In this document: in pieces, positions 57,256 through 61,103 of the stretch
Layout of the letters: every line of letters begins with the position of its first letter
How positions within the stretch are numbered: the stretch's first letter is position 1
Origin: Hoyosella sp. YIM 151337
GTDB taxonomy: Bacteria; Actinomycetota; Actinomycetes; Mycobacteriales; Mycobacteriaceae
NCBI RefSeq assembly: GCF_026041215.1
Contig: NZ_JAPEIQ010000046.1
Span: forward strand, 1 to 64,000
Direction: 5' to 3'
DNA length: 64,000 nt
Program-made: the position numbers and the translations under genes
Notes under the pieces: generated by a model
Seen by the model: only the letters and a program-made list of their open reading frames with translations
The model's database searches: none
Told to the model about the DNA's origin: nothing

Positions 57256-58068
<813 letters not shown>

Positions 58069-58487: not shown

Positions 58488-58559
58488 CCCGTCAACCAAC
58501 GTTACCAACGCGAGATCAATACGATATCCGAACGTTATTTTTCGAGTTATCGAAGCGCT

Positions 58560-58740
58560 ATCTGCGGGGACGAGGGTTGAGGTCACCCCGGACGGCCAGG
58601 CAGGCCGTCGAGGCTCGCCGAATGAAGGGACGTCCGAGCATGAACCCTTTCGACCGTTGCCTTCTGGTGAGCAAATGTGAGTGCGCTCGTTCATTAGGCA
58701 GCCTCGCCTTGCGGTGAGGCGCTTCCATTGCTGGATTCAG
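58560..58740 (-). ncRNA. Candidate omega (reRNA) guide RNA of the TnpB system
   Basis: TnpB nucleases use an RNA made from the 3' end of tnpB and the right end of the transposon, with the guide taken from the flank. This interval covers the tnpB 3' end and downstream 130 nt and can fold: GCCTCGCC/GGTGAGGC at the tnpB end, GACGGCC-AGGCA-GGCCGTC at 58591-58609, and a GGGG/CCCC pairing near 58566-58589. Exact ends are unknown. Confidence 0.35.
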
Positions 58741-60130
58741 GTTTCATTGCCACCAGCGCCGCCGCAGCGGTCGTCTTACGGTCGGCTCCACCATTGTCGA
58801 AGCAGGCACTCTGCTCCGCCCGCGCATACCGCGCGAGGTTGATCGCGGCGTTAAGATCACGGTCGATACCGGTGATGTTCAACCCGCAGTGCTCGTTGTC
58901 GCAGACGTACAAACGGTCTGACAAGCTCAGTTTGGCTTTCACTGAACCGCAACCAGAACACGTCTTCGAGCTGGGATACCACCGGTCGGCCTGTACACGC
59001 ACCGAGCCGTACCGGGTGGTTTTGTAGTCGAGCTGCCGGGAGAACTCACCCAAACCAGCATCAGCGAGCGAACGATTCAAACCCTTCTTGCGGGCACCAC
59101 CGGCGGTCATCATGTTCTTCACCGCAAGCGTCTCGGTGCCGATCACATCGAAGGACTGCGCCAACGAGGTGGTGAGTTTGTGCAGACGGTCCCGGCGCAG
59201 GTTACCCACCCGTATGTGCTGTTTCGCGATGACTGCCTGTGTGCGTTGCCAGGCGTTCGACGGCTCCCGCCGGGTTTCGGTTTCCGCGTCCCATGGGCCT
59301 TGCTGGCGGGCGGCTTTACGTTGCAGCGCCCGCAACGTCCGCGAGGCCTGTTTGAGTTCCCGTGGGGCTTTGCACCGCAGGACTTCCTCACCGTCGGGTG
59401 TGGCTGCGACGATCAAGTCTTTGACACCGAGATCAACACCGGCCACCGGGGCGAGGCGCTTCACATGAGCCGGACGGCTGGCGGCACGCTCAACCACACA
59501 GGTGAAACTCACCAGCCAACTCCCACGCTCGAACCGAACCGTGGCCTTCAGAATCCGGGCTGTGCCGTGTTCGAGGCGGCGGGCGAGTTTGCGGGTCGAC
59601 TCGTGCACCCGCAGCGTCCCTAGCCGGGGCAGTGTCACGTGATGCCGGCCTGGTTCGACGCGGATCGTTCCGGTGGTGAACGCGAACGCCCTGGCCGAAC
59701 GCTTCGACTTGAATGACGGGAACCCGACGCGCGGGCCTTTGCGTTTGCCTTTGCGGGACTCGTCCCAGTTCTTCAACGCGGCCGCGAGGTTCTTGCACGC
59801 GTTGGCGTACACCTCTTTCGAGTTCTCCGGCCACCACGGGGTGCCGTCCTCGCGGACCGCCACCTGGTGTTTACGCCGGTTGAAGTCGTTGCGTAGCGAT
59901 TGGAACGTCCATGCCAGGGTTGGGGTGAGATCAGCGTCGGTGATCCCGTAAGACTTCTCGGCCTCACGCTGGGACAGGTTGGCTTTCACCGCGCGGAGCA
60001 TCGTGTTATACGCGAACCGCGCGCCGCCCGCATGCGACTCCAACACGGCAATGTGCGCCGCAGTTGGGTCGAGCGCGTACTGATACGCCTGCAACACCCA
60101 ACCATCAGGAACCTCGAACCTCTCAGCCAT
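58694..60130 (-). CDS. tnpB: TnpB RNA-guided nuclease, IS607 type
   Basis: A 478-residue TnpB, ancestor-type of Cas12. The RuvC residues appear intact: Asp 233 (G-V-D-L-G), Glu 333 (G-T-E-T-L) and Asp 425 (D-R-D-L-N-A-A-I-N). The zinc ribbon has Cys 391, 394, 410 and 415. The N-terminal helix-turn-helix/wedge region is complete. ATG 60130 overlaps the tnpA stop by 4 nt. It should cut the donor site opened by transposition, guided by a transposon-derived RNA. Confidence 0.92.
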   Translation of the reverse strand: MAERFEVPDGWVLQAYQYALDPTAAHIAVLESHAGGARFAYNTMLRAVKANLSQREAEKSYGITDADLTPTLAWTFQSLRNDFNRRKHQVAVREDGTPWWPENSKEVYANACKNLAAALKNWDESRKGKRKGPRVGFPSFKSKRSARAFAFTTGTIRVEPGRHHVTLPRLGTLRVHESTRKLARRLEHGTARILKATVRFERGSWLVSFTCVVERAASRPAHVKRLAPVAGVDLGVKDLIVAATPDGEEVLRCKAPRELKQASRTLRALQRKAARQQGPWDAETETRREPSNAWQRTQAVIAKQHIRVGNLRRDRLHKLTTSLAQSFDVIGTETLAVKNMMTAGGARKKGLNRSLADAGLGEFSRQLDYKTTRYGSVRVQADRWYPSSKTCSGCGSVKAKLSLSDRLYVCDNEHCGLNITGIDRDLNAAINLARYARAEQSACFDNGGADRKTTAAAALVAMKPESSNGSASPQGEAA

Positions 60131-60711
60131 CAGGCCGTCTCGGTTCCAGAGTGCTTGGCGGCGGTGACCGCGCGCATCGCGCGGTTTCTCGCTCCCCGCC
60201 GCCCGTAGAGGCGGGCACACATCGAGGTCAGCACCTCGATCATGTCCCGTACCAGATCGTCCTCAGTCTCACCTTCGCCGGTCACCACAATCCGGCGGCC
60301 CTGCGCGGACAGGGCCGCTTCTAGGTGCTCAACCCCGAAACGGGCCAGCCGGTCGCGGTGCTCCACAACCACCACACTGGCAGAGGGGTCGGACAAAACC
60401 CTCCGGATCTTCGGACGCTTCCCGTTCAGCCCGGACCCGACCTCGGTCACCACCTCACCCACCACATGCCCGTTGTTGGCAGCCCACTGCGTGAGGCGCG
60501 CGACCTGCCGATCCAGATCGGCACGCTGATCATGCGACGACACCCGCGCGTACACCACAACCCGGCCATCGGGCCGGGCTTCGGCCACGTCGACCCAGAT
60601 CGTCCCCGAGTCCAGCCGCCGAGCAGGCACCGGCATCCGGTCCTCCCGGAACCACCGATACGCAGTCTGCGGATGCACACCCTGAGTACGCGCCCACTCG
60701 GCCAACTTCAC
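60130..60711 (-). CDS. tnpA: IS607-family serine recombinase (TnpA)
   Basis: A 193-residue transposase: N-terminal MerR-like helix-turn-helix (W-A-R-T-Q-G-V-H-P-Q-T-A-Y-R-W-F) and a resolvase domain with catalytic Ser (V-Y-A-R-V-S-S, Ser 58), D-R-L-A-R-F-G, and the conserved C-terminal helices. This is the DNA-binding-first order characteristic of IS607. It catalyses movement by a serine mechanism. The stop overlaps the tnpB start. Confidence 0.92.
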   Translation of the reverse strand: MKLAEWARTQGVHPQTAYRWFREDRMPVPARRLDSGTIWVDVAEARPDGRVVVYARVSSHDQRADLDRQVARLTQWAANNGHVVGEVVTEVGSGLNGKRPKIRRVLSDPSASVVVVEHRDRLARFGVEHLEAALSAQGRRIVVTGEGETEDDLVRDMIEVLTSMCARLYGRRGARNRAMRAVTAAKHSGTETA

Positions 60712-60764
60712 ACACTCAGTAAAACATACATTCGATCACGTTTACTCATATATCACCGAACAGT

Positions 60765-61103
60765 ATGCAGCCCCACACCGTGCTGAAGCTAAGTGGCACT
60801 CTCGACGCGCTGTCCCTTCCGCGATTCTTCACCATTCTGGAGATGCTCAGCGAACCAGCGCAGCTGCTCGTCGACCTCAGCCGCGTCGACTTCTGCTCTG
60901 TCTCCGCAGTGCGTGCGCTCACTGAACTTCGCATGCGCGACGCACTGAGCGATACAGCCATCGCGATCATCGCCCCAGAGCATGTGCGCTCAGTCTTCGC
61001 GCTCGCTCAGCAGCAGCCGGGCGTAACGGTGCATGCTTCCCTCAGCGACGCAGCAGAAAGCGCTAGCCGGCGAGGCGTGCGCAGCCTATCCCTGGCACAG
61101 TAA
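60765..61103 (+). CDS. STAS-domain protein (anti-sigma-factor antagonist type)
   Basis: A 112-residue single STAS domain: L-K-L-S-G-T-L-D opening strand, L-V-D-L-S-R-V-D-F-C-S-V-S-A-V-R-A-L in the loop-helix that usually carries the phosphorylated Ser. The chain begins almost at the first strand, about 10-15 residues shorter than usual, and the ATG is at the presumed edge of the IS607 element, so its original 5' end and promoter may have been cut away. No RsbW-type kinase is adjacent. It converges on the EAL-DICT gene. Confidence 0.75.
   Translation: MQPHTVLKLSGTLDALSLPRFFTILEMLSEPAQLLVDLSRVDFCSVSAVRALTELRMRDALSDTAIAIIAPEHVRSVFALAQQQPGVTVHASLSDAAESASRRGVRSLSLAQ

What the first reader, a model, noticed from the sequence alone, without database searches (positions are those of the whole stretch)
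58525..60761. Intact IS607 element with catalytically complete TnpB and a candidate guide RNA
TnpB keeps all three RuvC acids and four zinc cysteines, and the downstream region can form several stems. This may be a functional RNA-guided nuclease of actinobacterial IS607 type, little studied compared with IS605 TnpB.
Basis: partly seen in the sequence, partly recalled or inferred. Interest (0 to 1): 0.55.

Follow-up and report, generated by a model that had tools for sequence, protein, structure and literature searches.

The report
IS607 transposon with self-encoded guide RNA
This is an intact bacterial jumping gene of a known family that carries a probable RNA-guided DNA-cutting protein, and the guide RNA scaffold appears to be written inside the last part of the cutter's own gene rather than downstream of it as first thought.

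Summary
The element is real and intact, but its ends were misplaced. Other copies fix it at 58654-60772 (2119 bp, minus strand). The called guide-RNA region left of 58654 is host DNA: the upstream region and first codons of a STAS-domain gene, uninterrupted in two sister Hoyosella genomes. TnpB keeps D-E-D and four cysteines, is predicted to fold like ISDra2/ISFba1 TnpB, and is probably active (inferred, not assayed).

The guide scaffold lies in the tnpB 3' end plus a 40-bp tail. It matches Rfam RF03015 'Transposase-2' (below cut-off here, above it in many relatives). In a search of 301 genomes by RF03015 alone, 27 of 30 hits lie at a tnpB 3' end; the other 3 are at contig edges. In 35 copies, 12 of 22 pairs show compensating changes; four-fold sites of the last 40 codons are four times less diverged than the body, and that protein tail is predicted with very low confidence (disorder). 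A helix joins the tnpB stop to the right end and changes with it (TGCC/GGCA, TGCA/TGCA). GGG at the insertion point (27 of 28 junctions) fits a published IS607 target motif.

TnpA and TnpB trees conflict: tnpB looks like an exchangeable cassette. A known kind of system; the RF03015 identification may be new.

The parts
58654..60772 (-). Complete IS607-family element, 2119 bp, GG at both ends (CC on the plus strand)
   Evidence: Similarity to copies at other sites starts at 58652-58654; left-end motif located in copies
60712..60772 (-). Left end (LE), GGCTGCATACTGTTCGG..., before tnpA
   Evidence: 28 distinct LE-host junctions; sequence checked
60130..60711 (-). tnpA, IS607 serine transposase, 193 aa, GTG start, ATGA overlap with tnpB
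   Evidence: NCBIfam NF033518 209.5 bits; Pfam Resolvase at residues 51-189; catalytic domain matches IS1535 TnpA structure 6dgb, 229.6 bits
58694..60130 (-). tnpB, 478 aa, RuvC D233/E333/D425, four zinc cysteines
   Evidence: NCBIfam NF038280 454.8 bits; columns; predicted fold matches 8h1j/8exa/8iaz
58654..58783 (-). Guide-RNA (omega/reRNA) scaffold, 3' part of tnpB plus right end; 5' end approximate
   Evidence: Pair counts in 35 copies; four-fold-site constraint; lone fold shows the conserved helices
58697..58745 (-). Match to Rfam RF03015 Transposase-2 RNA, 38.1 bits (gathering 42.7, so below it)
58724..58735 (-). Hairpin 1: TCCA-GCAA-TGGA, inside the tnpB reading frame
58701..58720 (-). 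Hairpin 2: GCCTCACC-GCAA-GGCGAGGC (one A-C mismatch), inside the tnpB reading frame
58696..58700 (-). 5' strand of closing helix TGCCT (in the last Ala codons and first base of the stop)
58658..58662 (-). 3' strand of closing helix AGGCA, in the right end
58654..58693 (-). Right end (RE), 40 bp non-coding, ends in AAC-GG; also the expected TnpA binding region
   Evidence: IS1535 RE footprint at bp 10-28 is from PMC6188088 (passages)
58634..58653 (-). Predicted 20-nt guide, taken from host DNA next to the right end
   Evidence: Inference from the element boundary and published IS607 TnpB
60771..60774 (-). GGGG at the left junction: element GG plus preceding GG, predicted target motif GGG
   Evidence: GGG in 27 of 28 junctions
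58501..58653 (+). Host DNA: upstream region and first codons (ATGAACCCTTTCGA, 58640-58653) of the interrupted STAS-domain gene
   Evidence: Aligns with the same region of the uninterrupted gene in two sister genomes, local score 64 against at most 38 in 1000 dinucleotide shuffles for each sister; too weak to be listed by the blastn
60773..61103 (+). Host DNA: remainder of the STAS-domain gene
   Evidence: Pfam STAS_2/STAS; sister homologues

Best explanation
This is a complete, probably mobile IS607-family element that inserted at a GG into the start of a STAS-domain gene of a Hoyosella species. TnpA (serine transposase) moves it. [quoted passage not shown] TnpB then cuts DNA that carries GGG followed by the guide, that is, the empty site left when the element leaves or is missing on a sister copy, so that repair restores the element. 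The element's own right end offers CGG, not GGG, next to the guide, which would spare it. Shown here by sequence: boundaries, genes, catalytic residues, predicted fold, scaffold covariation, junction motif. Inferred: transcription, processing, cutting, repair, target motif as a TnpB requirement.
For: Boundaries and junctions; gene families; residues; AlphaFold model (mean pLDDT 79.6, pTM 0.60) best matches are TnpB-RNA-DNA complexes 8h1j, 8exa, 8iaz. Scaffold: 22 pairs in 4 helices, 95.6% of cells paired against 85.0% in shuffles, covariation score 0.258 against 0.110, 0 of 500 shuffles as high on these two, slid registers at most 50.7% paired. RF03015 hits found without using tnpB: 27 of 30 overlap, or lie within 118 nt downstream of, a same-strand tnpB match (some of these tnpBs are damaged); the other 3 begin within 166 bases of a contig start; 28 of 30 are followed by GCAACGG 35-55 nt on. 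Four-fold-site divergence of the last 40 tnpB codons 0.10 against a body mean of 0.40, 0 of 393 windows as low; residues 443-478 have pLDDT under 50. Own right end reads CGG where the target motif would be GGG. GGG was the depleted motif of ISXfa1 TnpB (PMC10711439, figure-legend passage).
Against: No transcript, cutting or transposition was measured. The window's own RF03015 score (38.1) is under the family's cut-off (42.7), and 9 of 30 hits in the family search are too (the window is one of the 9). Shuffle controls keep columns but not relatedness. The GGG bias can come from TnpA's (G)GG target preference (PMC6188088, section 5) rather than from TnpB. Joining the flanks with one GG copy leaves the STAS gene out of frame (9-aa ORF); zero or three C would be in frame, so the empty site is not exact, the C run changed length, or the gene was already broken. 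The 5' end of the RNA is unknown, and a possible CCG-CGG helix to the right end does not vary. Another stretch of the model (336-357) is also low in confidence, so low pLDDT is not peculiar to the tail.
Confidence: 0.85

Rival explanations
1. The guide RNA is the region downstream of tnpB at 58530-58740, as first read.
For: The stretch does form stems: a GACGGCC/GGCCGTC hairpin is in the fold.
Against: 58525-58653 is outside the element: it is not shared by copies at other sites and aligns with the upstream region and start codon of an uninterrupted STAS gene in two sister genomes (0 of 1000 shuffles as similar). Its fold is not better than shuffles. Only 58654-58740 belongs to the scaffold.
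Confidence: 0.03
2. The conserved hairpins at the tnpB 3' end are DNA or RNA features for TnpA binding, termination or tnpB translation, not a guide scaffold.
For: The right end is also where TnpA of IS1535 binds (bp 10-28; PMC6188088, passages). No RNA was seen here.
Against: Constraint and covariation reach well inside the coding region, beyond that footprint. The arrangement matches the published reRNA of an IS607 TnpB, which runs through the right end into host DNA (PMC10711439, section 25). No T-run follows the hairpins in the sequence (read by eye; no terminator scan was run).
Confidence: 0.1
3. TnpB is an intact but inactive or decaying passenger.
For: The other two copies found in this genome are damaged: C14 has lost its right end and C24 has an internal deletion.
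Against: The window copy has no frameshift, all catalytic residues, both ends and a complete scaffold.
Confidence: 0.15
4. The conflict between TnpA and TnpB similarity reflects uneven rates or hidden paralogues, not exchange of tnpB cassettes.
For: The TnpA tree does not reject groups A+B as one clade at 0.05 (p-AU 0.083). The groups were named from the identities, not beforehand, which weakens the p values.
Against: The two contrasts go opposite ways: group B has TnpB 81-88% but TnpA 54-57% identical to the window, group C TnpB 51-54% but TnpA 80-90%. The change lies near the tnpA/tnpB junction and reverses at the right end. The TnpB tree rejects A+C (p-AU 0.0004), which the TnpA tree supports (99/98).
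Confidence: 0.1

Closest known systems
IS1535 (Mycobacterium tuberculosis IS607-family element; TnpA structure 6dgb, PMC6188088)
   Same: TnpA catalytic domain aligns nearly end to end (residues 51-187, 229.6 bits)
   Different: Its TnpB and guide RNA were not treated in the parts that I read; its DNA was not compared here
H. pylori IS607 (PMC6188088, section 5)
   Same: GG crossover, preferred (G)GG target, no duplication reported there
   Different: Sequence not compared here
ISXfa1 TnpB (IS607, Xylella; PMC10711439)
   Same: GGG target motif, GG crossover, RNA of about 150 nt running past the right end, three predicted stem-loops (sections 25-26 and passages)
   Different: The pseudoknot tested there was not identified here; whether its RNA overlaps the coding region was not seen in what I read
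ISFba1 and RAGATH-18-associated IS607 TnpBs (PMC11061315)
   Same: IS607 TnpB with a structured RNA motif as guide scaffold; fold match 8iaz
   Different: There the RNA lies downstream of the gene (starts 13 nt after tnpB; a discussion passage calls it independent of the coding sequence); here it overlaps the tnpB 3' end; motif AGGAG or GAGGG there
ISDra2 TnpB (IS200/IS605; 8h1j, 8exa, 8bf8)
   Same: RuvC and zinc-finger fold, best structural match
   Different: Different transposase (Y1, recalled); 29% identity in the fold alignment with 8h1j
Rfam RF03015 Transposase-2 RNA
   Same: Sequence and structure match at the tnpB 3' end
   Different: Typed by Rfam as 'Gene; sRNA' with no role in the tool's output; the window copy has a short hairpin 1 and scores below cut-off

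Membership tests
IS607 insertion sequences | Serine-recombinase TnpA with N-terminal DNA-binding and C-terminal catalytic domain | tested here: met
   NF033518 209.5 bits over cut-off 110, covering residues 5-177; Resolvase domain at 51-189; the N-terminal domain alone matched no Pfam model
IS607 insertion sequences | GG at both ends | tested here: met
   LE: GG at the expected place in 9 of 10 other copies laid out without requiring it, L017 diverged there; the 28 junctions were scanned for GG, so do not count. RE: GCAACGG after 28 of 30 RF03015 hits
IS607 insertion sequences | No target-site duplication, exchange over one GG | tested here: inconclusive
   Sister empty sites are too diverged; the join with one GG copy is out of frame in the host gene
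IS607 insertion sequences | Transposition activity | not testable with these tools
   Only copies at different sites were seen
RNA-guided TnpB nucleases | RuvC D-E-D and zinc-finger cysteines | tested here: met
RNA-guided TnpB nucleases | TnpB fold | tested here: met
   Predicted model pLDDT 79.6, pTM 0.60; top matches TnpB complexes, E 4.4e-24
RNA-guided TnpB nucleases | Structured RNA at the right end continuing into host-derived guide | tested here: inconclusive
   Scaffold supported by covariation and constraint; no transcript data
RNA-guided TnpB nucleases | RNA-guided DNA cutting | not testable with these tools
   Needs an assay
Rfam RF03015 Transposase-2 | Score at or above gathering cut-off 42.7 | tested here: not met
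   38.1 bits in the window; 21 of 30 hits in the family search pass
RAGATH-18-type IS607 reRNA | RAGATH-18 RNA downstream of tnpB, outside the coding region | tested here: not met
   Among all Rfam families only RF03015 matched in 58500-60900 at E up to 5, inside tnpB

The most novel reading that the evidence does not exclude
Rfam's Transposase-2 RNA is the guide-RNA scaffold of a widespread, mainly actinobacterial (IS1535-like) IS607 TnpB lineage. It is written inside the coding sequence of a disordered TnpB tail whose amino acids are dictated by the RNA. TnpB plus scaffold is a cassette that moves between IS607 backbones, and the guide scaffold is re-fitted to a foreign right end through the closing helix (last codon GCC or GCA against right-end GGCA or TGCA).
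Probability: 0.6. Interest if true: 0.55.

Novelty: new member of a known kind. Interest (0 to 1): 0.42.

Why it matters
It fixes the likely ends, guide and target motif of an intact TnpB from an actinobacterium of the genus Hoyosella, which makes a cutting assay straightforward. It gives an Rfam RNA without a stated function a likely role, and suggests how a guide scaffold can be kept working while transposase and nuclease modules are exchanged. It also warns that a TnpB guide scaffold may be hidden inside the coding sequence, so that recoding the tail would destroy it.

Tried and rejected

RuvC-dead TnpBs among Rhodococcus/Nocardia relatives: pairwise output suggested G or T at catalytic places in L022 and L021; the multiple alignment showed D-E-D in all 28 rows, so an artefact.

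In-frame restoration of the STAS gene by removing the element: I expected it, but one GG copy gives a 9-aa ORF; not claimed.

Other genomic targets of the guide: 6 places with up to 3 mismatches, one of them the element's own guide, against 2 for the reversed pattern; no clear target.

Phage homologues: no match in the phage collection by blastn at E 1e-5; no protein search of it was made. Papers naming RF03015 or Transposase-2 RNA: one search listed two papers, unrelated by title and abstract. A paper that I recalled as a possible source of the motif, looked up by DOI, is not held, so the source of the family is not verified. A search for IStron papers found none.

A 3' hairpin inside the closing helix (58669-58688) is in the lone fold but its register differs between groups; left out of the pair count.

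A first count of four-fold sites gave no clear result for the last 24 codons (rank 55 of 515) because frames of L009, L012 and L015 were started too far upstream; recounted along the window's codons.

Full report
WHAT IS THERE. On the minus strand lie tnpA (60130-60711, 193 aa) and tnpB (58694-60130, 478 aa), overlapping by ATGA. NCBIfam names them IS607 transposase (209.5 bits) and IS607 TnpB (454.8 bits). The genome (G000) is taken to be a Hoyosella: the same-genus G001 has a copy on a contig of the same length as H. altamirensis NZ_JACHWS010000001.1 (1785438 bases). This naming is inferred; the tools give G000 no name. DNA similar to the element at E up to 0.001 was found in 84 of 401 genomes of the family (many are short matches) and in 44 plasmid records, in no phage record.

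BOUNDARIES. Copies of the same right-end type (L003, L005, L013, L014, L015, L017, L018) stop matching at 58652-58654; those of the other type stop at 58692-58704, within or next to the tnpB end. After RF03015 hits the right end reads GCAACGG followed by other DNA in 28 of 30; one search looked for this motif, so it is no independent count. Left ends begin GG and lie 2107-2163 bp away in 11 copies including the window (2119 bp); L013 is shorter (1799 bp), a second match in L008 at 2254 bp was dropped, and eight copies (L015, L017, L018, L057, L060, L061, L064, L071) gave none under that narrow pattern. In a wider scan, which required GG and similarity to one of six examples, 28 distinct junctions were found: the base before GG is G in 27 and A in 1, the one before that G in 18, A in 7, T in 3.

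HOST CONTEXT. Sister genomes G001 and G002 carry one uninterrupted STAS-type gene (131 aa each) downstream of DUF2277, with a 335-aa gene between. The window stretch 58501-58653 aligns with its upstream region and first codons: local score 64 for each sister against at most 38 in 1000 dinucleotide shuffles; upstream part alone 53 against at most 35. The blastn had not listed it. 60773-61103 is the remainder (Pfam STAS). So the element sits in codon 5 of this gene, and the supposed downstream RNA is host DNA. An ATG within the left end (60765) now opens a 112-aa frame; whether it is used is unknown. With one GG copy the join is out of frame.

THE GUIDE SCAFFOLD. Rfam finds only one family in 58500-60900 at E up to 5: RF03015 Transposase-2 at 58697-58745 (minus), 38.1 bits, gathering 42.7. 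A search with RF03015 in 301 genomes of the family, blind to tnpB, gave 30 hits in 18 genomes (21 hits over cut-off, in 13 genomes; 0 of 14 control genomes). Of the 30, 27 overlap or lie within 118 nt downstream of a same-strand match to TnpB, several of them damaged copies; L088, L104 and L109 have none and begin at or near a contig start. The right-end motif follows 35-55 nt on in 28 of 30; L099 ends at a contig end and L108 has a changed motif. Among 18 further loci, 8 have RF03015 over cut-off (four Bifidobacterium, a Bacillota and an Armatimonadetes assembly, a Nocardia and a Mycobacterium plasmid); 10 do not: L012 and L014, which are of the window's own TnpB type, and 8 more distant relatives. 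A laxer search of 9 of these loci added none.

COVARIATION. I aligned 130 nt up to the right end from 35 copies. RNAalifold's own consensus has 15 pairs, 7 with changes on both sides. For 22 pairs in four helices (those 15 plus a five-pair inner hairpin and two pairs that I added by eye), 95.6% of cells pair against 85.0% in shuffles; 12 pairs have double changes; covariation score 0.258 against 0.110; 0 of 500 shuffles as high on four measures and 1 of 500 on the count of pairs; slid versions pair in 29-51%. Weak points: pair 99-108 is unpaired in 15 of 35; the inner hairpin exists only in the long type (16-17 gaps); shuffles ignore relatedness, and much of the change at hairpin 1 separates two large groups. 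The closing helix links the end of the coding region (TGCC-T) with the right end (A-GGCA); six copies (L006-L009, L011, L012) have TGCA-T with A-TGCA instead, with no mixed case; this is one pair and may be few events. The lone fold of the window sequence shows these helices. A longer alignment of 19 copies of the other type gives 46 predicted pairs, 13 with double changes, mostly within the coding region.

DUAL CODING. In 12 copies of groups A and B (62 pairs of copies that differ by over 10% of codons), four-fold sites in the last 40 codons differ in 10%, against a mean of 40% and a minimum of 20% in 393 windows of the body; codons 401-440 are also low (18-25%). Residues 443-478 have pLDDT under 50, as has 336-357. 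The first version of this count was not conclusive.

MODULE EXCHANGE. Group A (window, L005, L014, L017), B (L002, L006-L009, L011, L012), C (L060, L061, L063, L064); the groups were named from pairwise identities. TnpA tree: A+C 99/98, B 100/99. TnpB tree: A+B 100/99; A+C rejected (p-AU 0.0004), B as one clade rejected (p 0.0165). TnpA does not reject A+B (p 0.083). Sliding identity changes near the tnpA/tnpB junction and again at the right end. A paper on six other species also reported that TnpB phylogeny does not follow that of the elements (PMC9956272, passages), so the idea of exchange is not new.

HOW IT WOULD WORK. Published IS607 TnpBs use an RNA that runs through the right end into host DNA and cut next to GGG (ISXfa1; PMC10711439, passages and sections 25-26) or AGGAG/GAGGG (PMC11061315, passages and section 6). 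A TnpB was reported to process its own mRNA (PMC10278001, title, abstract start, passages and section 13). The window element fits: its empty site would read GGGG then the guide, while its own right end reads CGG then the guide. Cutting and repair are inferred.

NOVELTY. The element is an ordinary IS607 with TnpB. The link between RF03015 and TnpB guide scaffolds did not turn up in the held library, which lacks most subscription journals and holds only open-licence papers; it may be known elsewhere.

Noticed in passing
57314-57508 (+): c-di-AMP riboswitch (RF00379, 52.1 bits) upstream of a resuscitation-promoting-factor-like gene (within 57385-58068; Pfam Transglycosylas, Rpf1_C).
   Followed up: no
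58488-58500 against L048 1295-2302 and L049 1520-2527: Both sister genomes carry a 335-aa gene between DUF2277 and the STAS gene that is absent at this place in the window.
   Followed up: no
L002 1943-4432 (G000 contig C14): The second copy in this genome has lost its right end, and its tnpB frame runs on into a DNA-alkylation-repair-like domain (PF08713, 29.3 bits), one open frame of 830 aa.
   Followed up: partly
L003/L004 (G000 contig C24): A third, internally deleted copy keeps a scaffold (RF03015 34.2 bits, below cut-off) and right end with its own flank, so the window TnpB might use its RNA in trans.
   Followed up: no
L019, L020, L022, L023, L024, L030, L033: More distant TnpBs of Saccharopolyspora, Rhodococcus, Nocardia and Mycolicibacterium with no relative of the window's TnpA detected within about 3 kb; all but L023 were scanned and show no RF03015 over cut-off. 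Possibly stand-alone TnpBs with another scaffold. L016 and L026 also lack a detected tnpA but do have RF03015; L021, L025 and L027 lie at contig ends, so absence says nothing there.
   Followed up: no
58865-58903 (tnpB residues 410-422): The zinc finger of most window-type TnpBs has a wider second cysteine pair (such as CDNEHC; with an insert in the window and L007) than the CxxC of more distant relatives.
   Followed up: no
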